Positions 25,851 through 47,048 of a DNA stretch of 47,614 nt are shown piece after piece. The notes under the pieces are model-generated. The model made no database searches. It was not told where the DNA came from and worked only from the letters and a program-made list of their open reading frames with translations. Position 1 is the first letter of the stretch, and each line of letters begins with the position of its first letter. The DNA is from Propionibacteriaceae bacterium (GTDB taxonomy: Bacteria > Actinomycetota > Actinomycetes > Propionibacteriales > Propionibacteriaceae): contig JAOPXN010000011.1 in assembly GCA_025965155.1 (NCBI GenBank), positions 1 to 47,614 on the forward strand. The letters run 5' to 3'. The translations under genes were made by a program, and so were the position numbers.

Positions 25851-25912
25851 CGCCGACTAGGCACAAACCCCGGCCTCCCGGCGGCGTGTCGGGGCAGACG
25901 GGACTACTGGCG
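25851..25912 (-). repeat. 63-bp dispersed palindromic element, copy 1 (62 bp, reverse orientation)
   Basis: It starts CGCCGACTAGG and ends GGACTACTGGCG on the plus strand. Its reverse complement aligns with the other copies along the whole length after allowing one missing G. The core reads CACGCCGCC on the minus strand. It lies directly upstream of the -10 box of the ECF sigma gene. Confidence 0.75.
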
Positions 25913-26073
25913 CGAAGGATGGTGCGGTGTCCGGCGCCGGGGTGGCGGATGGCTCGGTGTGGTTCGGCGGTGCGAAGCTGCCCCGTCGGGCTGCCATGGC
26001 CCGCGTTCGACCGGTAGCCGGGGGACACGTACAGGGTCCCGGCGCCGGCCGAACGGGCGCAATCAGCCGGCAA

Positions 26074-26136
26074 CGTCGAGTAGTCGCCTCCGCCGCGCCA
26101 CGCCGACCAGAACGCGGAGGTTGCGACTACTCGGCG
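26074..26136 (+). repeat. 63-bp dispersed palindromic element, copy 2
   Basis: This is the most symmetric copy. CGAGTAGTCGC pairs with GCGACTACTCG, then CTCCGC with GCGGAG inside it, and CAACG with CGTTG outside (26071-26139). About 22 base pairs surround a 20-base loop carrying CCACGCCGACCAG. Confidence 0.9.
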
Positions 26137-26141
26137 TTGGG

Positions 26142-26204
26142 GGGTGAGTAGTCGCCTTCGCTGCGCCACGCCGACCAGGATGCGGAGGTTGCGACTACTC
26201 GGGG
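26142..26204 (+). repeat. 63-bp dispersed palindromic element, copy 3
   Basis: It follows copy 2 after 5 bases in the same orientation and ends exactly at the base before the narK stop codon (26205). GAGTAGTCGC (26146-26155) pairs with GCGACTACTC (26191-26200), and the loop again has CCACGCCGACCAG. Confidence 0.88.
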
Positions 26205-27578
26205 TTAGACGCCGTCTAGGCGGGTGGGGGAGCGGCGGATGAAGGCTGCCCAGGTGACGGCGAAGCAGATGGCGTAAAAGAGGATGAAGCTGATGTACGC
26301 GCCGTCGCCGGTCTTCAGCGTCAGGAAGGACTGCCGGAAGGCTAGGTTCACTGCGACCCCGCCGAGGGCGCCGATGGCGCCGGCGAGGCCGATCAGGGCT
26401 CCGGCGCGACGCATTGCTCTGGTGTCGGCGGTCGCCAGATCCCCGCCACGGCCTACATCGAGCTGCGCCTTGGCGTGGAAGATCGCCGGGATCATCTTGT
26501 ACGTTGACCCGTTTCCGATCCCGGAGAACAGAAACAGCAGCACGAAGCCGAGGATGTACAGCGGCAGCGAGCGCATCTGGGAGGCGGCCAGCACGACAGC
26601 GGCCCCGACGGCCATGGCGACGAAGTTGTAGAAGGTGACGACCGAGCCGCGGAACCGGTCCGCCAGTGCCCCACCGACGGGACGGATCAGCGACCCCAGC
26701 AGCGGACCGAGGAAGGTCAGTGCGGCCGCCTTGACCGGATTCGGGAAGTCCTCCGGGAACTGCACCAGCAGGACCTGGCCGAAGGCGAAGCTGAAGCCGA
26801 TGAAGGAGCCGAAGGTACCGATGTAGAGCAGCGCGATGATCCAGGTCTCCTTGTGCCTGGTGACCTCCCGGATCGCGCCCTTCGCATTGCGCGCCGAGCT
26901 GAGGTTGTTCATGTACAACGCCGACCCGAGCGCCGCCAGCACGATCAGCGGGATGTAGATCCCGACAATCACGCGTGGGTGGTCGGCGCCGAAGGCGGCC
27001 AGCACGCCCAGACCGACCACCTGCACAACGGGTACGCCGAGGTTGCCACCGCCGGCGTTGATGCCCAGCGCCCAGCCCTTGAGGCGGGCCGGGTAGTAGG
27101 CGTTGATGTTGGTCATCGACGATGCGAAGTTGCCGCCGCCGACACCTGCTATCGCGGCCACGACCAGCAAGGTGTTGAACGAGACGCCCGGCTTGAGCAG
27201 CAGGGCGATCAGGATGGTGGGGATCAACAGCAGCAGCGCGCTGATGATGGTCCAGTTCCGACCGCCGAACCTCGCCACCGCAAACGTGTACGGCAGCCGG
27301 AGCACAGCACCGACCAGGGTGGGTACGGCGGTGAGCAGGAACTTCTGGGCCGGGCTGATGCCGTACTCAGGTCCCAGGAAGAGGACCAGCACCGACCACA
27401 GGCTCCAGACGGAGAAGCCGATGTGCTCGCTGGCGACGGAGAAGATCAGGTTGCGACGTGCGATGGCCCGACCCTTGGTGTTCCAGAAGTCGTAGTCCTC
27501 GGGACGCCAGTCGTCGATCCAGCGGCTTCCGCGTTTGGACGCTACACGTGTGACAGTGGTGGATTCGGCCGTGGCCAT
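26205..27578 (-). CDS. narK: NarK-type nitrate/nitrite transporter (MFS), 457 aa
   Basis: This is a twelve-helix major facilitator for nitrate uptake or nitrate/nitrite exchange. The nitrate signature is seen in GVGGGNFASSMTNINAYYP, followed by KGWALGINAGGGNLGV; a second glycine-rich copy is GIGNGSTYKMIPAIF. The substrate Arg residues of the family fit LRLPYTFAVARFGGR and RPVGGALADRF. ATG 27578 has AGGAG 7 bases upstream, better than the ATG at 27692. The position after nirBD points to assimilation. Confidence 0.93.
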   Translation of the reverse strand: MATAESTTVTRVASKRGSRWIDDWRPEDYDFWNTKGRAIARRNLIFSVASEHIGFSVWSLWSVLVLFLGPEYGISPAQKFLLTAVPTLVGAVLRLPYTFAVARFGGRNWTIISALLLLIPTILIALLLKPGVSFNTLLVVAAIAGVGGGNFASSMTNINAYYPARLKGWALGINAGGGNLGVPVVQVVGLGVLAAFGADHPRVIVGIYIPLIVLAALGSALYMNNLSSARNAKGAIREVTRHKETWIIALLYIGTFGSFIGFSFAFGQVLLVQFPEDFPNPVKAAALTFLGPLLGSLIRPVGGALADRFRGSVVTFYNFVAMAVGAAVVLAASQMRSLPLYILGFVLLFLFSGIGNGSTYKMIPAIFHAKAQLDVGRGGDLATADTRAMRRAGALIGLAGAIGALGGVAVNLAFRQSFLTLKTGDGAYISFILFYAICFAVTWAAFIRRSPTRLDGV

Positions 27579-27627
27579 GGGTAGCTCCTCATCAGGGGAG
27601 GTAGGTGAGACGGAGACAGTCTTGGTC

Positions 27628-27658
27628 TGACGCTGCCGCGAGCGGCCGGTCAGCGTCA
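27628..27658. terminator. Hairpin between nirD and narK (terminator or attenuator)
   Basis: TGACGCTG (27628-27635) pairs with CAGCGTCA (27651-27658), with an inner CCGC/GCGG. It lies 41 bases after the nirD stop and about 50 bases before the narK start. There is no T tract, so it may only reduce read-through. Confidence 0.4.
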
Positions 27659-27698
27659 TGGATTCAGGCGGTGGGGGGAAGCGTTGGGTCACGTCTGC

Positions 27699-28043
27699 TC
27701 ACATGGTGCGGAGGATGATGTTGGCGTCAGCGTCGGTGGAGACGTGGTAGCTGCGCAGCGGCGCTGCGCCGGTAACCGAGCAGCCCGTGTCGAGCTCGAA
27801 CGCGTTCTGGTGCAGCGGGCACACGACCACCCGCTGGTCGATCTGTCCGTCGGCGATCGGGCCACCGCGGTGCGGGCAGACTGCCGACACCGCCCGGATC
27901 GAACCGTCGCGGAGCCGGAACACGGCGATCTGCTCACCGACGACCCCGAACGCTCGTCCCTCGCCGATCGGGATCTGGTCCAGCGGGCCGACGACGTGGA
28001 CGCCGGCTGTCATTGAGGCGGGGGTCACTGCGTCGGTGCTCAT
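27699..28043 (-). CDS. nirD: Nitrite reductase small subunit NirD (Rieske-type), 114 aa
   Basis: This is the small subunit of NAD(P)H nitrite reductase. The Rieske-type [2Fe-2S] ligands are present as Cys56 and His58 in CPHRGGP and Cys75 and His78 in CPLHQNAF. Some NirD proteins lack these ligands, so this is the cluster-bearing kind. The ATG overlaps the nirB stop as ATGA (28040-28043), showing coupled translation. Confidence 0.93.
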   Translation of the reverse strand: MSTDAVTPASMTAGVHVVGPLDQIPIGEGRAFGVVGEQIAVFRLRDGSIRAVSAVCPHRGGPIADGQIDQRVVVCPLHQNAFELDTGCSVTGAAPLRSYHVSTDADANIILRTM

Positions 28044-30556
28044 CGGACCGGCACCTGAGGGAGCACCTCGAGCGGCAGCGAGGTACGGAACTGGCCGGCC
28101 GTGAACGGGTCGCTGCGTTCCTTCCATGGGTCGACGTAGTTGTCGACGGACGCCTGCATGGCCGCGTCGAGCTGCTCGGCGATCCCTTCGGAGTCGTCCA
28201 CGATCACGGCTCGGATGTGCTCGATCCCGACCCGGGGTACGAAAGCGTAGGTGCGCTCCAGCCAGTTGGCGTTCTCCCGGTAGTACTGCATGAACCGGCC
28301 CGTCAGGGTCTTCACCGTTTCGGGGTCATCGACTGTGGCGAGCAGGTCGCCCTTGCGGATGTGCGCACCGGCGGCTCCACCGACGTAGATCTCCCAACGG
28401 TCGCCCTCGATGGCCACGACCCCGACGTCCTTGACCAGCGACTCGGCACAGTTGCGCGGGCAGCCGGACACGGCCAGCTTCATCTTCGCCGGCGACTCGA
28501 TGCCCTGGAAGCGGCTCTCGATCTCGACCCCGAGCTTGGTGGAGTCACCGGTACCGAACCGGCAGAACTCACGCCCCACACAGGTCTTCACCGTGCGGAA
28601 GCTCTTCCCGTACGCGTACCCCGAGGGCATGTCGAGGTCAGCCCATACCTGGGGCAGGTCCTCCTTGCGGATACCGAGCAGGTCGATCCGCTGGCCACCG
28701 GTCAGCTTCACCATCGGCACCTTGTACTTGTCCGCGACGTCGGCGATTCGCCGCAGCTGGGCGGGGCTGGTGACGCCACCCTTCATCTGTGGAACCACGG
28801 AGAAGGTGCCGTCACGCTGGATGTTGGCGTGCACCCGGTCGTTGACGAAACGGGCGTCCCGCTCGTCGACGTAGTCGTCGGCCAGCATCATCTTCATCAG
28901 CGAGGCCAGCCCCATCTTCGACTTCGCATCCTCGGCCCCGTCCGGTGCGAGGGCGGCGAAGACCTCCGACACCGAGCGCAGCCCCTGCTCCCGAATGGCC
29001 GCCATCAGGGCCGGCTTGTCCATCGGGATCCCCGGTACGTAGTACGACGCAGCCGGGTCTTCCTCCACTGCACCGTCGGCCGCCCACTCCACTACCTGTT
29101 TCACCAGGAGCTTGCAGGAGCCGCAGCCCTTGCCGGCCCGGGTCTTGTCCATCACGCCGGCGACGGTCTTGCAGCCACTCTTGACCGTGTCGGCCAGTGC
29201 CTTCTTCGAGACGCCGTTGCAGTTGCAGACCTGCGCGTCGTCGGCCAGCTCTGCCACCCCGACCTCCTCGGCCGGTCCGCCGAGGTCGAACATCAGCGAG
29301 ACCCGCTCCTGTGGCAGCGGCAGACCGCGGTCGAACGCCTGCGTCAGGTACGCGACCTTGCGGCTGTCTCCGAGCAGCGTGGCACCGATGATCTTCTCGT
29401 CCCGGATCACGATGGACTTGAACACGCCGCGGCTGGGCTCGGAGAACACGATGTGCTCGTCGGTGTCGCGTTCGGGTTCCTGGATACCCATCGAGGCCAC
29501 CTCGACGCCGGCCACCTTCAGCTTGGTCGCGGTACGCGATCCCAGGTAGGCGGCGGTGGTGTCGGCAGCGGTGACATGGTCGGCCAGTACGGCGGCCATC
29601 TCCCACAGCGGGGCCACCAGCCCGTACACCTCACCCCGATGCTGGACGCACTCGCCGACGGCGAAGATGTCATCCTCATCGAGAACCCGCATGGAGTCAT
29701 CGACCACGATCGCCCGCTCCACCGGCAGGCCACTGGTGAGGGCCACGTCGACGTTGGGCCGGATACCTGCGGCGACAACCACCATGTCGCAGTGCAGGTC
29801 GGGCTGGTCGCGGAGCCGTACTCCGGTGACCTTGTCCTCCCCGAGGATCGCAGTGGTCCGACTGCGGAGATGGACGCCGATGCCGAGCGCCTCGACGCTG
29901 CGTCGCAGGATCTCCCCGCCGGCCGGGCCCATCTGCGCGTTCATCAGGTGCCCGCCGGAGTGCACCACCTCGACACTGATGCCGTGACTCTGCAGACCGC
30001 GGGCCGCTTCGAGACCGAGCAGGCCGCCGCCGATCACCACGGCGCGACGGTGGTGGTCGTGGGTCGCGTAGGACACCATGTTGCGGGTGTCGTCGATGGT
30101 CCGGAACGCGAACACCCCCGGCAGCAGCGATCCGTCCGCGGTGTAGAGCCCGTCCATGTTCGGCATGAAGGAGCGGCTGCCGGTGGCGATGATCAACACG
30201 TCGTAGGGGGTTACGCCACCGTCGTCGGAGTACACCAGCTTGGCGAACCGGTCGATCTTCTCCGCGCGGACACCGGCGTGCAGGGTGATCTCGTTCTCTG
30301 CGTACCACGGCAGCGAGTTCAAGAAGATGTCGGCGTCGCTCTCCTCACCGGAGAGGACGTGGCTGAGCATGATCCGGTTGTAGTTGCCGTACGGCTCGTC
30401 ACCGAACATGGTGATGGTGAACTGCATCGCTCCGCCGCGTTCGAGGATCTCCTCGACGGCGCGCGCGCCCGCCATTCCGTTGCCGATAACAACTAGCCGC
30501 CGCCGCAGGTCGGTGGGCTGCGCCAGGTCGGTTGGACGGTCCAGAGTGCTCGTCAT
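28040..30556 (-). CDS. nirB: Assimilatory NAD(P)H nitrite reductase large subunit NirB, 838 aa
   Basis: The enzyme reduces nitrite to ammonium with NAD(P)H. The FAD/NAD module begins VVIGNGMAGARAVEEIL and includes VVIGGGLLGLEAARGL. The BFD-like [2Fe-2S] domain (about 440-490) has VCNCNGVSKKAL and GKGCGSCKLL. The ferredoxin-like half domain precedes the sirohaem/[4Fe-4S] domain, whose four ligands are in TCVGREFCRFG (near 660) and SGCPRNCAE (near 700). The length is that of typical NirB. The ATG overlaps the TGA of the upstream reading frame by one base (TGATG). Confidence 0.96.
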   Translation of the reverse strand: MTSTLDRPTDLAQPTDLRRRLVVIGNGMAGARAVEEILERGGAMQFTITMFGDEPYGNYNRIMLSHVLSGEESDADIFLNSLPWYAENEITLHAGVRAEKIDRFAKLVYSDDGGVTPYDVLIIATGSRSFMPNMDGLYTADGSLLPGVFAFRTIDDTRNMVSYATHDHHRRAVVIGGGLLGLEAARGLQSHGISVEVVHSGGHLMNAQMGPAGGEILRRSVEALGIGVHLRSRTTAILGEDKVTGVRLRDQPDLHCDMVVVAAGIRPNVDVALTSGLPVERAIVVDDSMRVLDEDDIFAVGECVQHRGEVYGLVAPLWEMAAVLADHVTAADTTAAYLGSRTATKLKVAGVEVASMGIQEPERDTDEHIVFSEPSRGVFKSIVIRDEKIIGATLLGDSRKVAYLTQAFDRGLPLPQERVSLMFDLGGPAEEVGVAELADDAQVCNCNGVSKKALADTVKSGCKTVAGVMDKTRAGKGCGSCKLLVKQVVEWAADGAVEEDPAASYYVPGIPMDKPALMAAIREQGLRSVSEVFAALAPDGAEDAKSKMGLASLMKMMLADDYVDERDARFVNDRVHANIQRDGTFSVVPQMKGGVTSPAQLRRIADVADKYKVPMVKLTGGQRIDLLGIRKEDLPQVWADLDMPSGYAYGKSFRTVKTCVGREFCRFGTGDSTKLGVEIESRFQGIESPAKMKLAVSGCPRNCAESLVKDVGVVAIEGDRWEIYVGGAAGAHIRKGDLLATVDDPETVKTLTGRFMQYYRENANWLERTYAFVPRVGIEHIRAVIVDDSEGIAEQLDAAMQASVDNYVDPWKERSDPFTAGQFRTSLPLEVLPQVPVR

Positions 30557-30903
30557 CAGTGCTCCACCATCCCGAGGTCGACGACCACCGATCCGCTGAC
30601 GCCCACCTGCGCTACCAGATGGAGCTCGATCACCGAGCCGCCCTCAATGTCCTCGACCACCCGCAGCGGCACATGCACGTCGCTCTTGGCGCCGATCGGG
30701 AAGTAACGCATCGGCACGCCGTCACGCATCAGCACGGCAGTGATCAGCTCCGCCGAGGAGTTACCCCCGCGGAAGTACAGGGTCTGGTTGATCACGCCGT
30801 CCGGCACTACGTGCACCAGCTCCGACGAGATGGGCACCGGCTTGTCCAGGCCGGCTCCCTCGAACGGATAGATGCCTTGCAGGAAAAGATTCTTGGTCAT
30901 CAT
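30556..30903 (-). CDS. Possible separately translated 115-aa protein inside the nitrate reductase frame
   Basis: The last 115 codons of the nitrate reductase frame start with two ATG codons (30903 and 30900). AAAGGA at 30911-30916 lies 7 bases upstream, a textbook ribosome binding site. The segment reads NLFLQGIYPFEG, LYFRGGNSSAELI, GVPMRYFPIGAKSDVHVPLRVVED, and ends SVVVDLGMVEH. It looks like a compact beta-rich domain and not a linker. I recall similar small proteins beside nitrate and nitrite reductase genes in other actinobacteria but cannot name a function. Confidence 0.55.
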   Translation of the reverse strand: MMTKNLFLQGIYPFEGAGLDKPVPISSELVHVVPDGVINQTLYFRGGNSSAELITAVLMRDGVPMRYFPIGAKSDVHVPLRVVEDIEGGSVIELHLVAQVGVSGSVVVDLGMVEH

Positions 30904-33102
30904 CGGACGGTCCTTTCGACGGGACGGTTGCAGGAGCTGGTTCAAGGTCGGTCGGGTCGGGGCCGAGTGTTCGGTGTGCTTCGGTGGGGTGGCGAGGAGG
31001 TGAGCATCATCCGGTGAGCCGATCCGCTCCAGGCTGACGGCGCAGGCCTTGAATGCCGGCATCTTCGAGTGCCGGTCCAGCGCGGGGGAGGTGAGGACGT
31101 TCGCGTTCGACGCCCCGCCCCAGTGGAACGGAACGAAGATCGTGTCGGAACGGATGTCCTCGGTCAGCCGGGCGCGGAAGTTGGCAGTGCCGCGTCGGGT
31201 CCGAAGCTGGACGATGTCCGCGCCGGTGATGTCCAGCCGTCGCGCCAGGTCCGGGTGGATTTGTGCCTCCGGCTGGACCTGGGTCTGGGCTGTGCTGCGA
31301 TGCCTCCGGGTCTGGGCGCCACTTTGGTACTGCGCCATCAGTCGCCCGGTTGTCAGTACGTAGGGGAAGTCCGCGTCCGGCACCTCGACCGGATCGCGGT
31401 GCTCAACCCGGATGAAGCTGGCCCGCCCGTCCGGGGTCGGGAAGCTCTCGGCGAACAGCCGCGGGGTACCCGGATGCGTCGGCGACGGGCAGGGCCAGAA
31501 GACCCCTTTCTCGGCCTCGATCCTCTCGTAGCTGATGCCGGAGTAGTCCGCGATGCCACCCGCGCTGGCCCGCCGCAGCTCCTCGAACACGTCGCGTGGC
31601 TCGGCGGAGAAGTACTGGCCGCGCCCCAGCCGGTCGGCGAGCGCCTTGATCAGCTCCAGGTCGGTCCAGACACCCGCCGGTGGCGGCAACGCGCGGCGTC
31701 GCCGGATCACCCGACCCTCGAGGTTGGTCATCGTGCCCTCTTCCTCGGCCCACTGGGCCGTCGGCAGCACGACGTCGGCGAACTCGGCGGTCTCGGCCAG
31801 GAAGATGTCGGACACCACCAGCAGGTCGAGGCCGCGGAGCCGGTCGGCCACCCGGTTGGCGTCGGGTGCGGACACCACCAGGTTCGAGGCCAGCACCAGC
31901 AGCGCCCGTACCCCGCCGGGGCTGCCCAGCTTGTCCAGCATCTCGAAGGCCGACAGGCCAGGCTGGGGCAGCTCTTCCGGGGCGATGCCCCAGACCTTGG
32001 CGACATGAGCCCGATCAGCCGGGTCGGCCAGCTTCCGGTAGCCGGGCAGCTGGTCGGCCTTCTGACCATGCTCGCGGCCACCCTGCCCGTTGCCCTGCCC
32101 GGTGATGGTGCCGTAGCCGGAGTACGGCTTACCGGGCAGACCCAGCGCGAGGGCCAGGTTCAAAAACGCCTGGGCGGTGTCGGTGCCGTTGCTGTGCTGC
32201 TCGGCGCCGCGGGCGGTCAGGATCATCGCGCTCGGAGCGGTGGCGAGGGCCTGCACCGTCTGCCGGAGCTGTTCGACCGCGATGCCGGTGATGCGTTCGG
32301 TCCGGTCCGGCCAGTACGCCGCCACGCCCGCCTTGACCGCGGCGTACCCCTTGGTCCTGGCCGCGATGTAGTCGGTGTCGACGTAGCCCTCTTTGATGGC
32401 GATGTGCAGCAGGCCGTTGGCCAGTGCCAGGTCGGTACCGGGAAGCGGCTGCAGGTGCACGGTGGAGCCGGCCGCGGTGGCGCTGCGGCGTGGGTCGACA
32501 ACGATGTGGACGGCGCCGTTCGCCCGTCCGGCGTCGAAGAACTGCATGGCCGGCGGCATGGTGGCCGCCGGGTTGGAGCCGACCAGCAGGATGGCCTTCG
32601 CCCCGGCGATATCGGCGAGCGGGAACGGCAGCCCCCGGTCGACGCCCAACGCCCGGTTGCACGCGGTCGCAGCGGACGACATGCAGAACCGGCCGTTGTA
32701 GTCGATGGCGGAGGTGCGCAGCGCCACCCGGGCGAACTTGCCGAAGGCGTACGCCTTCTCGTTGGTGAGCCCACCGCCGCCGAAGCAGCCGACACTGTCC
32801 AGCCCGTACCTGCGTTGGCTGCTGGTGATTCCGTCGACGACCTGGTCCAGCGCCTCGTCCCAGCCGGCGGCACGGAACGGGCTGTTCCGGTCACCGCGGA
32901 CGGTCCGGACCAGCGGAGTCAGCAGCCGCTGTGGATGGTCCAGCAGCGAGTTGGCGTTCCAGCCCTTGGAGCACAGGCCGCCCAGGTTCGTGGGGAAGTC
33001 AGGTTGCGGCTGCAGCGTTGCCGGTCGGTCGCCCGCGACCATGCTGATGCCGCACTGCAGCGAGCAGTACGGACAGTGCGTGAGCGTGGGTGCGGGGGAC
33101 AC
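30556..33102 (-). CDS. Assimilatory nitrate reductase (molybdopterin), in-frame with a C-terminal 115-aa domain, 848 aa
   Basis: This is the catalytic subunit of the NasA/NarB type, which reduces nitrate to nitrite with bis-MGD. The [4Fe-4S] ligands are Cys10, Cys13, Cys17 and Cys44 (CPYCSLQCG and GLCSKGW). Family blocks are GRFCMSSAATACNRALG, LLVGSNPAATMPP, AEEEGTMTNLEGRVIRR and VPFHWGGASNANVLT. GTG 33102 has GGAGG 8 bases upstream. The reductase proper ends near residue 700. A low-complexity Pro/Thr/Arg linker then runs into a separate conserved-looking domain without a stop. No flavin reductase (NasB/NasC partner) is adjacent, so the electron donor is unknown. Confidence 0.92.
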   Translation of the reverse strand: MSPAPTLTHCPYCSLQCGISMVAGDRPATLQPQPDFPTNLGGLCSKGWNANSLLDHPQRLLTPLVRTVRGDRNSPFRAAGWDEALDQVVDGITSSQRRYGLDSVGCFGGGGLTNEKAYAFGKFARVALRTSAIDYNGRFCMSSAATACNRALGVDRGLPFPLADIAGAKAILLVGSNPAATMPPAMQFFDAGRANGAVHIVVDPRRSATAAGSTVHLQPLPGTDLALANGLLHIAIKEGYVDTDYIAARTKGYAAVKAGVAAYWPDRTERITGIAVEQLRQTVQALATAPSAMILTARGAEQHSNGTDTAQAFLNLALALGLPGKPYSGYGTITGQGNGQGGREHGQKADQLPGYRKLADPADRAHVAKVWGIAPEELPQPGLSAFEMLDKLGSPGGVRALLVLASNLVVSAPDANRVADRLRGLDLLVVSDIFLAETAEFADVVLPTAQWAEEEGTMTNLEGRVIRRRRALPPPAGVWTDLELIKALADRLGRGQYFSAEPRDVFEELRRASAGGIADYSGISYERIEAEKGVFWPCPSPTHPGTPRLFAESFPTPDGRASFIRVEHRDPVEVPDADFPYVLTTGRLMAQYQSGAQTRRHRSTAQTQVQPEAQIHPDLARRLDITGADIVQLRTRRGTANFRARLTEDIRSDTIFVPFHWGGASNANVLTSPALDRHSKMPAFKACAVSLERIGSPDDAHLLATPPKHTEHSAPTRPTLNQLLQPSRRKDRPMMTKNLFLQGIYPFEGAGLDKPVPISSELVHVVPDGVINQTLYFRGGNSSAELITAVLMRDGVPMRYFPIGAKSDVHVPLRVVEDIEGGSVIELHLVAQVGVSGSVVVDLGMVEH

Positions 33103-33113
33103 ACGCCCATCCT

Positions 33114-33151
33114 CCGGTGACCGTGTTACAGCGCCCGGGGAAAGATGTAAC
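33114..33151 (-). promoter_or_regulatory. Candidate GlnR binding site upstream of the nitrate assimilation cluster
   Basis: On the minus strand GTTAC (33147-33151) and GTAAC (33125-33129) are exactly 22 bases apart. This is the spacing of the two a-sites in the GlnR box GTNAC-n6-GAAAC-n6-GTNAC-n6-GAAAC. The two b-site positions (CCCCG and ACCGG) do not match well. GlnR is known to activate nitrate assimilation genes in Streptomyces and Mycobacterium. Confidence 0.45.
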
Positions 33152-33211
33152 GCCTTCGAAAAGCAATCCTCACAGCCTCAGAACAGCGATGTTAGGCGGT
33201 GTGACGAGCCT

Positions 33212-34942: not shown

Positions 34943-35012
34943 CAGGTCCTCCAATTCGAGCGATGCCGAGCGGTCCCCGACGGATACATCTCTCGATCGT
35001 TGCTGAACGGTT

Positions 35013-36728: not shown

Positions 36729-36796
36729 GAGTTTCTTCCTATCAAACGCAGTCGTGGTGGCGGTGCCGACCTGATGAAGGACGATCCGGGTAGAAG

Positions 36797-38314: not shown

Positions 38315-38396
38315 GAGTTCCTCTCGATCCCGCAGTCGGCTCCAGCCAAGCACACCCGGTCGGGGTGATCATGGTGCGCCTGACCAGAAAACCCGT

Positions 38397-38414
38397 TGAC
38401 CTCCAGTGAGGTCA
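38397..38414. promoter_or_regulatory. Operator-like palindrome TGACCTC-CAGT-GAGGTCA in the glpK / GTPase divergent region
   Basis: Perfect 7-base arms surround a 4-base spacer. The left arm is part of TTGACC (38396-38401), which could be a -35 for rightward transcription. The half-site CCTCCAGT resembles MerR/SoxR-type operators only loosely. Confidence 0.45.
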
Positions 38415-38461
38415 CTTGCTTCACTCGGATCAACACCGGCGATGCGGAGACGGAGATCGAA

Positions 38462-38572
38462 ATGCGGCAAACGCTCATGTTCACCCAGAAGGTCACTGCC
38501 ACCAACTTCAAGGACATGAGCCTCAGTGGATGTACTGAACCTAGGAATTCTTGCGCACGTCGACGCCGGTAA
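38462..38572 (+). CDS. Possible 36-aa leader peptide overlapping the GTPase gene
   Basis: ATG 38462 opens a 36-codon frame that ends at TAA 38570-38572, 47 bases inside the GTPase gene in another frame. A GGAG lies shortly upstream of it. The product starts MRQTLMFTQKV and ends in a run of Arg. Tet(M) genes are known to have a leader peptide with attenuation, which makes this placement suggestive. Coding status is unproven. Confidence 0.25.
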   Translation: MRQTLMFTQKVTATNFKDMSLSGCTEPRNSCARRRR

Positions 38573-40544: not shown

Positions 40545-40598
40545 GGATGCACACGCTGCGCACTGGGAATGCCAGCGCACGATCCCGCCGCCGTTGCG

Positions 40599-40604
40599 TA
40601 GGCT
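40599..40604 (+). promoter_or_regulatory. -10 box TAGGCT, likely leaderless promoter of the GNAT fusion gene
   Basis: TAGGCT is followed by AACGGT and then GTG 40611, with no ribosome binding site. Confidence 0.5.
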
Positions 40605-40610
40605 AACGGT

Positions 40611-43259
40611 GTGCGTGCCACCCAGGAGCAGAACCCTCCCGGTTACCCGACCGAGTGGGAGGCGGACGTCGTTCTCACCGACGGTGGGGTAGCCCGGCTC
40701 CGCCCGATCAAGCCCAGCGACGCGCAGATGCTGGTGGACTTCTACGACCGGGTGTCACCGGAGTCGAAGTACCTCCGGTTCTTCGCGCCGTACCCTCGGC
40801 TTAGCCAGCGTGACGTGGAACGGTTCACGAAGGTTGACTACGTCGACCGGGTCGCCTTCATCCTGACCGTCGGTGAGCAGATGATCGCCGTCGGCCGGTA
40901 CGACCGGACCGAGAACGACCAGGCCGAGGTGGCGTTCCTGGTCGAGGATGCCCATCAGGGGCGTGGCATCGCGCAGCTGCTGCTCGAGCACCTAGCCGAG
41001 GCCGCTCGAGAACGCGGCATTACCGCCTTCGTGGCCGAGATCCTGCCGGAGAACCGACGGATGGCCCAGGTGTTCGTCGACGCGGGCTACCGGGTGTCCA
41101 AGGGCATCGAAGACGGCGTGCTCTCGGTGGAGTTCCCGATCCTGCCGACCGACACCTCCGTCGGTGTGATGGAGCGACGTGAGCACCGGGCCGAAGGCGC
41201 GTCGATGGAGCGGATGCTGACGCCGGACCGGGTGGTGGTTCTTGGCGGCGGCCGACGGGTGCAGGGCCTGGTGAACTCCATGCTCAGCGGCGGCTTCCGT
41301 GGCGAGATCGTTGGTGTCAGCACCGACGACAGCCCGGTGTCGGGCGTTCCGACGTCAAGCTCGATCGCGACCATCGACGGCAAGATCGACCTGGTTCTGG
41401 TCTCCATCCCGACCCGACAGATGGGTGCGGTGGTTATCGACGCGGCGCACAAGGGCGCTCACGCGATGGTGGTGTTGACCGGCACCGACTACCAGCCGAA
41501 CGACAACCGGACCATCGTGAACCTGGCTCGGGCGTACGGGGTCCGGGCGCTTGGCCCGGATGCGCTCGGCCTGATCAACACCGACCCGGAGGTGGCCCTG
41601 AACGCCAGCCCGGGTCCGATGCCGCGGCTTGGTGGAGTCGGCCTGTTCTGCCAGTCGGCTGCGGTGGGGGTGGCGCTGCTCAACCACGCGGTCCGGCAGA
41701 ACCTCGGGCTCTCCTCGTTCATCAGCACCGGCGACTACGCCGACGTCACCGGCAACGACGTGATGCAGTTCTGGGAGGACGACGAGAGCACCCGGGTCTG
41801 CCTGCTGTCGCTGGACTCGATCGGCAACCCCCGCAAGTTCTCGCGGATCGCCCGGCGGCTGACGCGGCGCAAGCCGGTCGTCGTATTTGCGCCGGGACGG
41901 ACCAACCGAGCGGCCCACGCGGGAGTGCGGGGCGGACTGGGCCATGCCCCGGATGCCGCCGTGGATGCCCTGTTCCGGCAGGCCGGCGTGATTGTGGTGC
42001 ACCGGCGAGGGGCCATGTTCGACATCGCCAAGATCGCCTCCCGGCAGCCGCTGCCGTCCGGGCCCCGGGTCCGGATCATTACCAACTCCGCCACTCTGGC
42101 GAACCAGATGCTGCACACGGTCCAGGCGGTCGGCCTGCTGGGTGCCGGCGATCCGGTGATCCTGGGCAGTGAGTGGGGGGCCGATGCCTTCGCCGATGCT
42201 GCGGGCGAGGCGCTGGCCGACGAGCGAACCGACTCGGTCGTCTGCGCGGCCGTCGGCGTCTTCGACGACGGCACCGAAGCGGTGCACCACACCCTGGAGA
42301 AAGTCGCCGCCAGCGCCGTCAAGCCGGTGATCGGGGTGTTCTTGGACTTCAGCACGCCGCAGGACGAGGGCGGCGAGCCGGACCTACTGGGAGGTCTGCC
42401 CAGCTTCGACGCACCGGCCGACGCCATCCAGGCGCTGGCGGCGGTGACCGCCTACGCCCACTGGCGGGAGCGGGACCCCGGCGCAGTCCCACTGATCGAG
42501 GCCGACCAGATCCAGGCAAAGCGGGTGATCAACCGGGTCATCTCCTCCGAGCCGCGGGGCCGGGAGCTGACAGACGGGGAGACGTCGGAGCTGCTTGACG
42601 CCTACGGTTTGCTGCCGGTGCCCAAATACCCGGTCGCCACCTTGGCCGAGGCTATTGCCGCGGGGGAACGGCTGGGCTGGGACGTGGTGCTCAAGGCGAC
42701 GGCGCAGGCAGTCCGCGGCCGGCCGGACATGGCCAGCGTGCATCGGCACATCGAAAGCGTGGAGGCGATGGCCGCTGCCTGGCAGGACCTCGGCCGGCTC
42801 GTCTGCGAGCTCGGGCTGGGTGACCACAGTGACCTGTCGGTCGCGGTCCCGGTGGTGCAGAAGATGGCGCCGCCAGGCGTCGCCCTGGTGATCACCAGCA
42901 TGGAGGACGCCGCCTTCGGACCGATCATCTCGCTCGGACTGGATGGGATCGCCAGTGAGCTGCTCGGCGATGTCGTGTACCGGGTGCCACCGCTGACCAC
43001 GGTGGATGCAGCCGCCATGGTGCGAGACCTGAAGGCTGCACCAACACTGTTCGGGCGGCACGGGACTCCGGGGGTTGACGTCGAGGCGGTGCAGGACGTG
43101 CTGCACCGGGTAGCCCAGGTGGCTGACGACCTGCCGCAGCTGGCGCACCTGACGCTCAGCCCGTGCATTGCGTCGATCAGCGGTATCTCGGTGCTCGGCG
43201 CGCGCATTTTCGTCGCCCCGACCGATGACCAGCGGGACCCGATGGCCCGGATCCTCTGA
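40611..43259 (+). CDS. GNAT acetyltransferase fused to NDP-forming acyl-CoA synthetase-like domains (PatA type), 882 aa
   Basis: The N-terminal GNAT domain (about 20-190) has AEVAFLVEDAHQGRGIAQLLLEHL, the acetyl-CoA loop being DAHQGRGIA. A CoA-binding Rossmann domain (about 200-330, RVVVLGGGRRVQGLV), a succinyl-CoA-ligase-like domain, and an ATP-grasp domain (about 640-880, DVVLKATAQAVRGRPDM) follow. The order fits actinobacterial protein lysine acetyltransferases such as Streptomyces PatA, which control acetyl-CoA synthetase. In the segment GRTNRAAHAGVRGGLGHAPD I do not find the SHTG motif with the phospho-His of active synthetases. The second part is therefore probably a ligand sensor. Confidence 0.9.
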   Translation: MRATQEQNPPGYPTEWEADVVLTDGGVARLRPIKPSDAQMLVDFYDRVSPESKYLRFFAPYPRLSQRDVERFTKVDYVDRVAFILTVGEQMIAVGRYDRTENDQAEVAFLVEDAHQGRGIAQLLLEHLAEAARERGITAFVAEILPENRRMAQVFVDAGYRVSKGIEDGVLSVEFPILPTDTSVGVMERREHRAEGASMERMLTPDRVVVLGGGRRVQGLVNSMLSGGFRGEIVGVSTDDSPVSGVPTSSSIATIDGKIDLVLVSIPTRQMGAVVIDAAHKGAHAMVVLTGTDYQPNDNRTIVNLARAYGVRALGPDALGLINTDPEVALNASPGPMPRLGGVGLFCQSAAVGVALLNHAVRQNLGLSSFISTGDYADVTGNDVMQFWEDDESTRVCLLSLDSIGNPRKFSRIARRLTRRKPVVVFAPGRTNRAAHAGVRGGLGHAPDAAVDALFRQAGVIVVHRRGAMFDIAKIASRQPLPSGPRVRIITNSATLANQMLHTVQAVGLLGAGDPVILGSEWGADAFADAAGEALADERTDSVVCAAVGVFDDGTEAVHHTLEKVAASAVKPVIGVFLDFSTPQDEGGEPDLLGGLPSFDAPADAIQALAAVTAYAHWRERDPGAVPLIEADQIQAKRVINRVISSEPRGRELTDGETSELLDAYGLLPVPKYPVATLAEAIAAGERLGWDVVLKATAQAVRGRPDMASVHRHIESVEAMAAAWQDLGRLVCELGLGDHSDLSVAVPVVQKMAPPGVALVITSMEDAAFGPIISLGLDGIASELLGDVVYRVPPLTTVDAAAMVRDLKAAPTLFGRHGTPGVDVEAVQDVLHRVAQVADDLPQLAHLTLSPCIASISGISVLGARIFVAPTDDQRDPMARIL

Positions 43260-43383
43260 GGACGGTCCTCTGCCCCTGGGGATGTTCTCAAGGGAGGCTG
43301 CGGGGTGATCCACAGCCCTGACCGGCTGCTCGAGGTCATGCTCCGCATCAGGGATCGTCAGCGGATCATGGCAGGATGAGCGC

Positions 43384-43965
43384 ATGAAGGTCGACTCCAC
43401 CGCCAGGAAGGGCTTACGAGCCGAGATCGATGCCAGCGGGTACTTCCCCGAGCTGGTGGAGGACGCGATCGTGCTTGCGGTCGGTGACGAGGAGCTGGTG
43501 GACTTTGTGGTGCACCACGAGCCCACGTTCAACAACGACGAGATCCACCGGCACATCACGATCTTGGCGCTCACCCCGACCCGGTTGATCGTCGGTCACA
43601 CCGATGACCATCCGGCCGAACCGCACATGCCGGGCTCGTACGCGGCGACGTCGACCGAGTCCGTGGGGTTGAGCAGGATCAACAACGTGGTGCTGACCCG
43701 GGTGGTGACCCAGCCGGAGGACTACCGGCCCGGGTCGACCGGGGTGTACGAGGTCTGGCTGACGGTCGGCTGGGGCGCCGTCCGCCGGGTCGACCTCGAG
43801 CAGGCCACCTGCAGCGACCCGCAGTGCGACGCCGACCACGGCTACACCGGCGCCTTGGTGGCCGACGACCTTTCGGTACGGATGGGAACGGGCGCGGTCG
43901 GGACCGAGCGGGTCGCGCGGCTGGCGCAGTTCGCCAGCCGGCTGCAGCAAGCGGCCGCGGTATGA
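43384..43965 (+). CDS. DUF5998 family protein, 193 aa
   Basis: This is a soluble protein conserved across actinobacteria and of unknown function. Landmarks are SGYFPELVEDAIVLAVGDEE, HHEPTFNNDEIHRHITILALTPTRL (NNDEIHRHIT is the core), VYEVWLTVGWG, and CSDPQCDADHGYTG with two Cys. ATG 43384 lies 7 bases after CAGGAT, a degenerate -10 box. The stop overlaps the next start (ATGA at 43962-43965), so the two proteins are translated together and probably act together. Confidence 0.85.
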   Translation: MKVDSTARKGLRAEIDASGYFPELVEDAIVLAVGDEELVDFVVHHEPTFNNDEIHRHITILALTPTRLIVGHTDDHPAEPHMPGSYAATSTESVGLSRINNVVLTRVVTQPEDYRPGSTGVYEVWLTVGWGAVRRVDLEQATCSDPQCDADHGYTGALVADDLSVRMGTGAVGTERVARLAQFASRLQQAAAV

Positions 43966-45146
43966 CCCCTGGCTCAATCGGCCGCGCGGCCAACGACCTG
44001 GCGGCGCGCGCGGCGAGCGACCCGGCGTCGATGGTGGTACCGCGCTACGGCCATTCCACCCTTGCGGACCTGATGCCGAGCATCGGAGCCCACCTGGGGG
44101 TGCCCGGCTGTGACCGTCCCGCGATTGAGCTGCCGGACTCGGACCGGTATGTGGTGGTGCTGATCGACGGACTGGGCTGGCAGCTGGTCCGCCGCGCCAT
44201 CCAGCACGTGCCGTACCTGGCTGGGCTGCTGGGCGACGCCGAGCCGATCACCTCCGCGGTGCCCAGCACGACCGTGACAAGCCTTGCCTGCCTTGGCACC
44301 GGATTGCCACCGGGCCAGCATGGGCTGGTCGGCTACACCTCCCGCGTGCCGGAGACGGGTGAGCTACTGAACGCGCTCACCTGGGACTCCGATCTGGTGG
44401 CTCGCAACTACCAACCGCAGCCGACCTTCTTTGAGCGGGCTGCCGCCGACGGCGTGGCCGTCAGCTCGGTAGCCCTGGAGCGCTTCAAGGCCACCGGACT
44501 CACCGAGGCCGCGCTCCGCGGGGCGGATTTCGTGTCTTTCGAGCACGAGAAGCACGAGGACACCCGGATCGAGCTCACGGTGGCGGCGTCCAAGCGTGGC
44601 CGGCGGAGCCTCGTCTACGCCTACGAGCGGGAGCTGGACCACTGTGGTCACGTCGAAGGGTCCGCCTCCCCGACCTGGCTGGAGCACTTGATCCGGATTG
44701 ACGCCATGTGCGAGCGACTGCGGGATGAGCTGCCCGACGATGTGCGGATGGTCATCACCGGCGACCACGGGATGATCGACGTGCCGCCCAACCACCGCCT
44801 GGTGGTCGAGGACGAGCCGGAGTTGGTGGCGGGGATGTCGGCCCTGGCGGGGGAGGGGCGTTTCCGGCAGGTGTACGTAGACCACGACCACCCGCAGGCG
44901 GTGGCCGCGCGCTGGCGGGACCGGCTGGGAGACACTGCATGGGTGCTGACCCGAGACGAGGCAATCGATGCCGGCTGGTTCGGGCCTGTCGCCGACTGGG
45001 TCCGGGACCGGTACGGGCACGTACTGGTCGCCATGCGCGACGACTACGCCCTGATGACCCGGCAGTTCCCCCGCGAGCTGTCCCTCGTCGGCATGCACGG
45101 CTCGCTCACCCCGGCCGAGATCATGGTCCCCCTCTTCACCGACTAA
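43962..45146 (+). CDS. Alkaline-phosphatase-superfamily nucleotide pyrophosphatase/phosphodiesterase-like protein, 394 aa
   Basis: This is a metal-dependent phosphodiesterase or phosphatase of the NPP type. The first metal ligand is Asp in VVLIDGLGWQL. The Thr nucleophile region is SAVPSTTVTSLACLGTG, a second ligand set is ELDHCGHVEG, and the late site is MVITGDHGMIDVP. MHGSLTPAEIMVPL closes the domain. There is no signal peptide, so it should be cytosolic, and the substrate is unknown. ATG 43962 overlaps the DUF5998 stop. The longer frame beginning at 43824 is not supported. Confidence 0.88.
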   Translation: MTPGSIGRAANDLAARAASDPASMVVPRYGHSTLADLMPSIGAHLGVPGCDRPAIELPDSDRYVVVLIDGLGWQLVRRAIQHVPYLAGLLGDAEPITSAVPSTTVTSLACLGTGLPPGQHGLVGYTSRVPETGELLNALTWDSDLVARNYQPQPTFFERAAADGVAVSSVALERFKATGLTEAALRGADFVSFEHEKHEDTRIELTVAASKRGRRSLVYAYERELDHCGHVEGSASPTWLEHLIRIDAMCERLRDELPDDVRMVITGDHGMIDVPPNHRLVVEDEPELVAGMSALAGEGRFRQVYVDHDHPQAVAARWRDRLGDTAWVLTRDEAIDAGWFGPVADWVRDRYGHVLVAMRDDYALMTRQFPRELSLVGMHGSLTPAEIMVPLFTD

Positions 45147-45191
45147 CCCCCGGGTCTCTGATCCGCCGACGGCACAAGCACCACCCCCTCT

Positions 45192-45254
45192 CGCCGACTA
45201 GTCGGTTCCTCCCCCTTCCTGGCGGCGTGTTGCGGCGGATGTGACTACTCGGCG
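45192..45254 (-). repeat. 63-bp dispersed palindromic element, copy 4 (reverse orientation)
   Basis: It runs from CGCCGACTAGTC to GACTACTCGGCG. Its reverse complement aligns without gaps with copy 2, with 49 of 63 positions identical by my count. The core reads CACGCCGCC on the minus strand. Confidence 0.85.
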
Positions 45255-45523
45255 GCAGGCTTCGCGCGGCGGTCGGCGGCTGAGTAGGAGCAGGCAGCTT
45301 GGTGAAACCTGGAATGTCACAGCTAGTAGCCGCTGAGGAGCTGGACGAGCGCAACCCAGTCTTTCCGCGCTCGACTGATGATGCGCAGCGTGAGGTGATC
45401 GACTTTCCTGGATGGCATCTTCGGTGCTGTGGGCGCCTGCGGGCTTTCTATGCCTTTCCCAGACGCCGGGTTGGCACCGATGCGCCCCGTCTGCGCTGCG
45501 CATCCACACCGCCACCTGGCAAA

Positions 45524-45586
45524 CGCCGACCCGTCATATTTGCTGCACCACGCCGACCAGAGCGCGGAAAAGCCGACTACTCGGCG
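45524..45586 (+). repeat. 63-bp dispersed palindromic element, copy 5
   Basis: The right arm GACTACTCGGCG and the core CCACGCCGACCAGAG are intact. The left arm (CGCCGACCCGTC) has decayed, so only partial pairing remains. Confidence 0.82.
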
Positions 45587-45618
45587 GATGGCGGTGTAGG
45601 TCGTCACGCATCCCGAAA

Positions 45619-45681
45619 CGCCGACAAGTCACATCTGCTGCACCACGCCGACCAGAGTGCGGAGGAGGGGACTACTCGGGG
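45619..45681 (+). repeat. 63-bp dispersed palindromic element, copy 6
   Basis: The left arm CGCCGACAAGTC, the core CACCACGCCGACCAGAG and the right arm GGACTACTCGGGG are all present. It lies 32 bases after copy 5 and 15 bases before the stop of the aminotransferase gene. Confidence 0.85.
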
Positions 45682-45696
45682 CTGTCGGTGAGCAGG

Positions 45697-46893
45697 TCAG
45701 ATTCGCAGCTGAGCGAAGGCGGTGCCCAGCCGGGACAGGCCTTCCTCGATGGTCGCCGACGGGTACGTGATGAACGACAGCCGCAGCGTGTTTCGCTGCG
45801 GTGACCGCGCGAAGAAGGGGGCACCGGGCACGAAGGCCACCTCGTGGCTGATGGCGTGCCCGAGCAGCTCAGTCGAGTCGAGCTCGGCGGGCAGCGTGAC
45901 CCAGACGAACATGCCGCCGTCCGGGTGGTTCCAGCTGCTGCCAGCTGGCAGCGCCTGCGGCAGGGTCGCCAGCATAGTGTCCCGGCGGCGGCCGTACTCG
46001 AGCCTGCTGCGGGCGATGCTCGCGTCCAGCCGGCCGGCGGCCAGATAGTGGGCTGCGGCGGCCTGGTCCAGGGTTGAGGTGTGCAGATCCGCCGCCTGCT
46101 TGGCCACCACCAGGGCCGGCTTGGTGGTCGGGTCGGTCCTCACCCAGCCGAGCCGCAGACCGGGCGCCAGGATCTTGGAGAAGCTACCGGCGCAGATCAC
46201 GTGCTCGCTATCGGTCATTGTGGCCATCGACGGCACAGGGTCGCCGGAGTACCGCAGCTCGGTGTACGGATCGTCCTCAATCACCCGGAAACCGAACTGC
46301 TCCGCAGCGGCTACCACCTCGGCCCGGTTCTGCGCTGACAACGTACGGCCGGTGGGGTTGTGGAAGGTCGGGACCGTGTAGAAGGCCTTCGGCCGGTGGC
46401 GTCTCGCCAGGTCGGCCAGCACCTCCACGTCCACGCCGTCGCCGGTGGACGGCACCTCCACCAGCGTCGCCCCGGCGAGAGCGAAGCACTGCAGCGCGGC
46501 CAGATAGCTCGGGCTCTCCACCAGAATCACGTCACCGGGATCGACCAGCGTGGTCGACAGCAGGCTGAGCCCCTGCTGCGAGCCGGTGGTGATGACGATG
46601 TCCTCAGGCCGGGTCGGGAGCCCGCGGGCGACGTACCTGTCCGCCACGGCGGCGCGTAGCTCGGCGTTCCCCTCGGTGGGCGAGTACTGCAGCACCTTGC
46701 CCGGCGCCGCGGCCAGGACTGCCTCGAACGCAGCGCGGGCGCCCTCGACGTCGAACAGCTCCGGAGCCGGCAGCCCGCCGGCGAAGGAGATCACCCCAGG
46801 CCGCTCGGTCAGCGCCAGCAGGTCGCGCACGATCGAGGACTGCACGCCATCGAACCGGCGGGACAGGGCTGGGGTGGAGGTGATGGTGCTCAC
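45697..46893 (-). CDS. PLP-dependent aminotransferase (class I/II, 2-aminoadipate type), 398 aa
   Basis: This is a fold type I aminotransferase. The PLP lysine is Lys240 in CAGSFSKILAPGLRLGW. FAGGLPAPELFDVE, QYSPTEGNAELRAAVA, TTGSQQGLSLL and PTFHNPTGRTLS are typical of the group with 2-aminoadipate (LysN) and aromatic or branched-chain aminotransferases, and of the MocR catalytic domain. No DNA-binding domain is attached. The substrate is open. GTG 46893 has AGGAG 7 bases upstream. Confidence 0.9.
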   Translation of the reverse strand: MSTITSTPALSRRFDGVQSSIVRDLLALTERPGVISFAGGLPAPELFDVEGARAAFEAVLAAAPGKVLQYSPTEGNAELRAAVADRYVARGLPTRPEDIVITTGSQQGLSLLSTTLVDPGDVILVESPSYLAALQCFALAGATLVEVPSTGDGVDVEVLADLARRHRPKAFYTVPTFHNPTGRTLSAQNRAEVVAAAEQFGFRVIEDDPYTELRYSGDPVPSMATMTDSEHVICAGSFSKILAPGLRLGWVRTDPTTKPALVVAKQAADLHTSTLDQAAAAHYLAAGRLDASIARSRLEYGRRRDTMLATLPQALPAGSSWNHPDGGMFVWVTLPAELDSTELLGHAISHEVAFVPGAPFFARSPQRNTLRLSFITYPSATIEEGLSRLGTAFAQLRI

Positions 46894-46929
46894 CGATAAC
46901 TCCTCGGTCTTCGGATGGGAACAGGGTGC

Positions 46930-46935
46930 ATGTTA
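46930..46935 (-). promoter_or_regulatory. Candidate -10 box TAACAT of the aminotransferase gene
   Basis: TAACAT on the minus strand would start a leader of about 30 bases that includes the GAGGAG ribosome binding site. Confidence 0.35.
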
Positions 46936-46985
46936 TGCCCACTCCTCTCGGCCTCCGCGAGTTATTCAGTCGGTGGCTATTGAGT

Positions 46986-47048
46986 CGCCGACTAGCCGCT
47001 GCCGCCGCGACACGCCGTCGGGTGGGCGGAGGGAGTGACCAGTCGGCG
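46986..47048 (+). repeat. 63-bp dispersed palindromic element, copy 7
   Basis: CGCCGACT at the left pairs perfectly with AGTCGGCG at the right. The inner part (CCGCCGCGACACGCCGTC) aligns without gaps with copy 2. It sits between the divergent aminotransferase and thymidine kinase genes, close to the expected -35 of the latter. Confidence 0.8.

What the first reader, a model, noticed from the sequence alone, without database searches (positions are those of the whole stretch)
25851..47048. Seven copies of a 63-bp palindromic element in three intergenic spaces
Copies at 25851-25912, 26074-26136, 26142-26204, 45192-45254, 45524-45586, 45619-45681 and 46986-47048 align end to end. Six are exactly 63 bp and one is 62. 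They share arms CGCCGA.TAGTC and GACTACTCGGCG and the core CACGCCGACCAG. Five read forward and two in reverse. Constant length with both orientations suggests a discrete mobile or once-mobile unit (REP/MITE class), or a selected RNA/DNA hairpin, rather than chance palindromes. No transposase or RAYT-like gene is in the window. I do not know of a named family that matches, but I cannot search.
Basis: seen in the sequence. Interest (0 to 1): 0.85.

Follow-up and report, generated by a model that had tools for sequence, protein, structure and literature searches.

The report
Palindrome repeats with own nuclease gene
The seven 63-base palindromes belong to a repeat family scattered between genes of some actinobacteria, and the genomes that carry it tend also to carry one particular DNA-cutting enzyme gene bracketed by the same repeats, which makes that enzyme the likely, still untested, spreader of the repeats.

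Summary
A profile of the family finds at least 135 places in the genome (121 exactly 63 bp), mostly intergenic; the genus is Microlunatus. It is REP-like but no known REP: no GTAG foot, no target duplication seen, no Y1 (RAYT) transposase in the genome. Across species the stems differ, but the loop CGACACGCCG and the end TGAC-NNN-TCGGCG persist. Outside the window lies a gene for an AbiEi-type DNA-binding region fused to a Vsr/DUF559-like nuclease domain. Outward-facing palindromes bracket it on both sides in 9 of 10 close homologs examined. Of 20 Microlunatus genomes, the palindrome pattern occurs in exactly the 6 with a close homolog (>300 bits) and in 0 of 14 others. Of 196 genomes of the order, six of the seven with the pattern are the six best scorers. 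Of 33 homolog loci, 30 have inverted repeats at the gene edges, against 2 of 33 farther out. I read this as a REPtron-like system built on an enzyme unrelated to RAYT. Association is shown; binding, nicking and mobilisation are inferred. Against it: two palindrome-bearing genomes lack a close homolog, two have one not bracketed by this motif, and several sister-genome comparisons are uninformative.

The parts
25851..25912 (-). 63-bp palindrome copy 1 (62 bp, most diverged of the seven)
   Evidence: R1 51.1 bits
26074..26136 (+). palindrome copy 2, best-scoring copy of the genome
   Evidence: R1 84.3 bits; folds at z -4.7
26142..26204 (+). palindrome copy 3, abuts the end of the MFS transporter gene 26205-27578 (-)
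   Evidence: R1 67.8 bits
45192..45254 (-). palindrome copy 4, 45 bp after the end of the phosphodiesterase-family gene 43962-45146 (+)
   Evidence: R1 73.8 bits
45524..45586 (+). palindrome copy 5
   Evidence: R1 70.9 bits
45619..45681 (+). palindrome copy 6, 15 bp from the end of the aminotransferase gene 45697-46893 (-)
   Evidence: R1 76.9 bits
46986..47048 (+). palindrome copy 7, between divergent genes
   Evidence: R1 70.9 bits

Best explanation
The palindromes are the non-autonomous repeats of a REPtron-like system. Its cognate enzyme is a protein of about 310-390 aa that joins an AbiEi-type DNA-binding region to a Vsr/DUF559-like nuclease domain. In this genome the gene lies outside the window, between pheT and argC (contig C76:52650-53606), bracketed by two outward-facing copies. 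Most likely mechanism: the AbiEi part binds the roughly 24-bp arms of a palindrome, the nuclease nicks at or beside it, and repair or replication copies the repeat into a new intergenic site, often just past a gene end with the G-rich tail towards the gene. The gene mostly keeps its locus while the repeats spread, and the repeats decay or disappear where the gene is lost. SHOWN: the repeat family, the outward arrangement, the bracketed gene, the co-distribution, the conserved acidic/His residues. INFERRED: binding, nicking, copying, and that this enzyme and not another factor moves the repeats.
For: (1) Bracketing: in the 10 close homologs examined (six of the genus, four of the order) a forward copy lies on the right in 10 and a reverse copy on the left in 9 (8 by motif with <=1 mismatch; the ninth, G000, by R1). 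(2) Flank test: inverted repeats at the gene edges (z > 4) in 30 of 33 homolog loci, direct repeats in 5 of 33; windows 1.0-1.4 kb out 2 of 33; left of one locus against right of another 8 of 33; obgE loci 4 of 18. (3) Genus: pattern CGACACGCCGN{6,30}TGACNNNTCGGCG in G000 9, G004 76, G007 37, G009 106, G012 6, G013 16, and 0 in 14 others; reversed-pattern control 0 in all 20. The same six, and no others, have an A6 match over 300 bits; the other 14 reach at most 99. (4) Order sample of 196: pattern in 7 genomes; six of them are the six best A6 scorers. (5) Two sister pairs differ in both traits: G000/G014 and G012/G006. (6) AbiEi-type models match 31 of 31 homologs and MTES_1575 27 of 31; E254, H261 and D270 are invariant in 31. 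(7) AbiEi of Streptococcus binds two 23-bp inverted repeats (PMC3985639, passages), a layout like the arms here.
Against: All evidence is association; nothing was tested biochemically. A6 contains the G000, G012 and G026 proteins, so their top scores are by construction. Labels are clumped on the tree (3 changes; 19 of 1000 shuffles have as few), so the 20 genomes are not independent. Palindrome-first test: of 8 genomes, G209 has no match and G211 only 79 bits; G212 and G213 have homologs (342, 346 bits) not bracketed by this motif. G009 is bracketed on one side only. A stricter scan kept both sides in 6 of the 10. The G012 homolog at argC (193 bits) has no palindrome nearby. MTES_1575 matches that I saw singly (three) are below its curated cut-off. 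Weaker homologs show inverted (17 of 25) and direct (16 of 25) repeats about equally. In 5 of 8 sister comparisons the site is not simply shorter by an element.
Confidence: 0.6

Rival explanations
1. The palindromes are binding sites of the AbiEi-nuclease acting as a regulator, chromosome-structuring or genome-defence protein. They are kept by selection, and the nuclease does not move them.
For: Two-arm layout resembles the AbiEi operator. Several positions are invariant among copies that are otherwise 68% alike, and 121 of 135 have exactly 63 bp. Copies sit in an ordered way at gene ends.
Against: Copy numbers differ widely between related species; copies lie in many unrelated spaces; the gene itself is bracketed by copies, as expected of a mobile unit.
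Confidence: 0.2
2. The palindromes are MITEs of an unrelated, perhaps lost, transposase; the nuclease gene merely sits in a repeat-rich spot or uses the palindromes as its own landing site.
For: Outward pairs also enclose other genes, so enclosing a gene is not unique to the nuclease. I did not search for every transposase family.
Against: Co-distribution with the nuclease; edge-specific inverted repeats in 30 of 33 loci although the repeat differs between lineages; no target duplication.
Confidence: 0.12
3. They are conserved RNA hairpins at gene ends (terminators or mRNA-stabilising elements), without mobility.
For: 79 of 125 copies face a gene 3' end, at a median of 11 bp; some copies fold well.
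Against: Little covariation; 46 of 125 face 5' ends; most sampled genomes of the genus lack the pattern; after rpmA a separate terminator-like hairpin precedes the copy (read by eye).
Confidence: 0.05

Closest known systems
REP / REPIN elements with TnpA-REP (RAYT) genes: the REPtron
   Same: Many dispersed intergenic palindromes; inverted pairs; an enzyme gene flanked by inverted copies; species-specific repeat matched to a gene lineage (features from PMC6006769, passages, and PMC3733652, sections 6 and 16).
   Different: 63 bp with an invariant loop instead of a 20-40 bp hairpin with a GTAG foot; no Y1/HUH domain in the genome; the enzyme is an AbiEi/Vsr-like fusion.
CGTC-tagged REPs of alpha-Proteobacteria
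   Same: REP-like dispersed palindromes without a RAYT; the paper reports no associated transposase gene (PMC3733652, sections 6 and 16).
   Different: Stems of 8-9 bp with loops of 4-5 and a CGTC tag; here about 24-bp arms, a 15-nt centre and a different conserved motif.
AbiE type IV toxin-antitoxin operator and AbiEi
   Same: N-terminal AbiEi-type region; DNA site of two inverted arms of similar length (PMC3985639, passages).
   Different: Here the protein carries a nuclease domain and the sites number over a hundred; no AbiEii partner was seen at the locus (the interval from pheT to argC was inspected for pheT, argC and the nuclease only).
Vsr-like nucleases (MTES_1575 REase, DUF559, EDxHD homing enzymes)
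   Same: Nuclease domain by profile; MTES_1575 is described as a Vsr-fold REase (PMC3710099, passages); the only solved-structure match is 3r3p, 'mobile intron protein', at a non-significant E of 0.16 (that 3r3p is I-Bth0305I is recalled).
   Different: I recall no member tied to dispersed palindromes; my searches listed none.

Membership tests
REP/RAYT (REPtron) | Many intergenic palindromic copies per genome | tested here: met
   At least 135 places; 4 of 128 with context lie mostly inside a called gene
REP/RAYT (REPtron) | 20-40 bp hairpin with a GTAG/GTGG foot | tested here: not met
   63 bp; conserved positions and tail differ; other species' copies lack GTAG at the foot
REP/RAYT (REPtron) | Cognate Y1/HUH TnpA-REP gene | tested here: not met
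   PF01797: 0 matches in the genome; controls ring in 10 of 14
REP/RAYT (REPtron) | Enzyme gene flanked by inverted copies (in the wide sense, any enzyme) | tested here: met
   9 of 10 close homologs on both sides, 10 of 10 on at least one
CGTC-REP | CGTC tag, 8-9 bp stem, 4-5 nt loop | tested here: not met
   Layout and motifs differ (definition)
MITE of a DDE transposase | Target-site duplication | tested here: not met
   No excess of 2-8 bp direct repeats at three assumed boundaries, 116 copies; 6 of 116 at k=3, offset 12 equals the shuffle maximum
MITE of a DDE transposase | Parent transposase with the same ends | not tested
   Only Y1 and the DUF559-type enzyme were searched
AbiE type IV TA | AbiEi-type protein | tested here: met
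   PADLOC AbiEi models match 31 of 31
AbiE type IV TA | AbiEii toxin partner in an operon | not tested
   No AbiEii search was run
Vsr-like nuclease | Vsr fold and active site | tested here: inconclusive
   Profile matches and conserved D243, E254, D256, H261; no structure was predicted
Mobile element | New insertions caused by the enzyme | not testable with these tools
   Needs an experiment

The most novel reading that the evidence does not exclude
A separate class of bacterial mobile repeats in which an antitoxin-type DNA-binding fold joined to a Vsr-like nuclease spreads palindromes, independently of Y1 and DDE chemistry. It would be widespread in Propionibacteriales, each nuclease lineage with its own repeat, and outward pairs of repeats may also carry cargo genes as cassettes.
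Probability: 0.42. Interest if true: 0.92.

Novelty: new variant of a known kind. Interest (0 to 1): 0.8.

Why it matters
If true, a common set of AbiEi/DUF559-type proteins of unknown role in actinobacteria would gain a testable function, and RAYT would no longer be the only enzyme type tied to REP-like repeats. It offers a model for repeats reported to lack a transposase, such as CGTC-REPs (PMC3733652, section 16). Because stems differ between species while the loop and ends stay, matched and mismatched enzyme-palindrome pairs are natural controls for a biochemical test.

Tried and rejected
RNA-structure reading: little covariation and no Rfam match in the window. RAYT reading: no Y1 domain. 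MITE with target duplication: none found. Pairs as ends of one fixed larger element: 13 similar pairs among 31 intervals between copies, due to one further repeat family in some loci. A rule that each copy's tail points to the nearest gene: true for 51 of 68 singletons, but it does not explain why neighbours within 2 kb are 23 -+, 12 ++, 10 -- and 0 +-. In G009, 15 of 15 neighbours within 3 kb are -+ (100 places typed from a list whose full count is 106); in G007, 3 -+ and 1 ++ (28 of 37 places). Terminator as target: seen only at rpmA (by eye); folding on the tail side was slightly stronger at 3' ends (median z -0.38 against 0.07 on the head side), too weak for a rule. The palindrome of G010 between rpmA and obgE was not found beside the nine loci tested, two of them G010 nuclease-like genes. 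Viral contigs gave no relative of the nuclease, and none lies in the 116 pattern loci. Sister genome: about 0.69 Mb of G014 gave 8 single-copy sites plus the nuclease site; own DNA minus G014 is 139, 112, 74, 29, 26, 3, -10 and -1260 bp; at C78:28022 G014 keeps a degenerate copy. Literature: seven searches for the link listed none; AbiEi with DUF559 gave 0 papers; the library is open-licence only. RepRanger (PMC12306157) was searched for terms only and names neither DUF559 nor AbiEi.
Full report
WHAT IS THERE. The window is contig C125 of a 4.49 Mb genome in 134 contigs. The seven copies were confirmed. A blastn search with one copy found 22 further places at E <= 1e-5. I aligned 33 copies, built model R1 with a structure that I gave, and obtained 149 matches, 135 distinct places after opposite-strand duplicates were removed. 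Lengths: 121 of 63 bp, 10 of 62, 3 of 64, 1 of 61. Only 150 of 8767 candidates were scored.

ANATOMY. On 116 copies of 63 bp with context, information starts sharply at position 1. A6, G10, C12, C30, G52, C54 and T58 are at 100% after rounding, and a G-rich tail is conserved to about position 70 on the 3' side only. The two arms show little covariation. Median pairwise identity is 68%, the highest 92% between neighbours.

CONTEXT. With my own simple gene caller, 128 of 135 places had context: 4 lie mostly inside a called gene, 5 at a contig edge, 119 between genes; 7 were on contigs fetched later. Neighbours within 2 kb are 23 -+, 12 ++, 10 -- and 0 +-. Of 125 usable copies, 79 face a gene 3' end (median 11 bp) and 46 a 5' end (median 72 bp); for singletons the tail side is nearer in 51 of 68 (p 4.5e-5).

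RELATIVES. In 31 genomes R1 (E <= 0.001) found G000 139, G004 120, G009 138, G012 84, and 0-3 in the other 27. The nearest genome by obgE, G014 (91% identity, 83% complete), has 0. Contig lengths identify G004 as Microlunatus speluncae and G009 as M. parietis; the genus of G000 follows from the shared genus label, its species is unknown to me. Copies of other species share the loop and ends but have other stems.

THE GENE. In G026, G012 and G000 an outward pair encloses a gene matching AbiEi_4 and, below cut-off, MTES_1575, with DUF559 over its cut-off in G000 only. The two others are 50% and 45% identical to the first. A fourth gene between two copies (G001) had no Pfam match and was left out of the profile; a pair in G009 encloses NUDIX genes instead. 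With profile A6, 167 of 196 genomes of the order match at 1e-10, and 20 of 20 of the genus at 1e-6, six of them above 300 bits.

TESTS. (a) Bracketing: right side 10 of 10, left side 9 of 10 close homologs; a stricter scan kept both sides in 6 of 10 and at least one in 9. (b) Flank test: inverted repeats (z > 4) in 30 of 33 loci, direct 5 of 33; obgE 4 of 18 inverted, 0 direct; weaker homologs 17 of 25 inverted, 16 of 25 direct; distant windows 2 of 33, mismatched loci 8 of 33. Loci with short flanks were dropped: L218, L232, L170 and L177. The 33 are best-scoring loci, one per genome. (c) Genus: 6 of 6 against 0 of 14; minimum 3 changes on the obgE-argC tree, and 19 of 1000 shuffles are as low, so the trait is clumped; presence falls in four separate places of the tree. 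(d) Order: pattern in 7 of 196; six are the six top scorers (G026, G000, G187, G055, G007, G123), of which G000 and G026 are in the profile; the seventh, G095, has one match with a shorter spacing and no A6 match at 1e-10. (e) Palindrome-first: 6 of 8 genomes have a homolog of 319 bits or more; G214 repeats G055's coordinates and is not independent; G208 and G215 are bracketed on both sides, G210 has the motif on one side of a partial homolog on a short locus, G212 and G213 lack it; G209 has no match and G211 79 bits. (f) On the nuclease tree the palindrome-flanked homologs are not one clade (12 tips within an ancestor of 38); most of the rest carry other flanking repeats.

LOCUS HISTORY. A homolog lies between pheT and argC in G000, G004, G007, G013, G009 (3.8 kb from argC) and G012; the G012 copy there is diverged (193 bits, no stop inside) and without palindromes, while its close homolog follows gyrA. 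In G011, G018 and G005 the pheT-argC gap is 55-130 bp; in G014 another ORF fills it. So the locus is old, and loss or replacement goes with absence of the pattern.

MECHANISM. AbiEi of Streptococcus binds two 23-bp inverted repeats, by those authors' model one monomer per half site (PMC3985639, passages). Here each arm is about 24 bp around a 15-nt centre. The nuclease part is Vsr-like by profile and conserved residues. The step from nicking to a new copy is conjecture.

VERDICT. It works like a REPtron; it is not a member of REP/RAYT, since the foot and enzyme tests failed. Confidence 0.6 that the nuclease is the cognate enzyme that spreads the repeats.

Noticed in passing
G009 (M. parietis) L289:4080-7261, L077:1501-2724; M. 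speluncae L250:3231-5806, L314:2746-4239; own L155, L147, L487: Outward pairs 1-3 kb apart often enclose one to three other genes (MFS with a MarR-like gene, NUDIX pair, oxidoreductase, racemase-like, CAAX-like, aldo-keto reductase-like; most named by eye), as if pairs could carry cargo cassettes.
   Followed up: partly
G000 C118:15885-16186 and C7:80449-80781 (L152, L081): A second repeat of about 290 bp, 84% identical, lies between outward pairs at two loci; a related ~100-bp piece recurs in C67, C94, C81, C70 and C87.
   Followed up: no
L161:1285-1370 (G010, rpmA-obgE space): A different long palindrome lies after a terminator-like hairpin in a species without the present family.
   Followed up: partly
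L198 and L199 flanks: Nocardioidaceae homologs of the nuclease are flanked by tandem arrays of other units containing GCCGAGTCGGCG or GCCGAGCTGTCG, inverted across the gene.
   Followed up: partly
G000 C34:114-326, C67:12172-12383, C7:192941-193178: Runs of three copies at a regular spacing of 74-75 or 87-88 bp.
   Followed up: no
L067:1501-1606 (G007): A 106-nt version holds the loop motif once in each orientation, suggesting that the 63-bp form is a shortened double unit.
   Followed up: no
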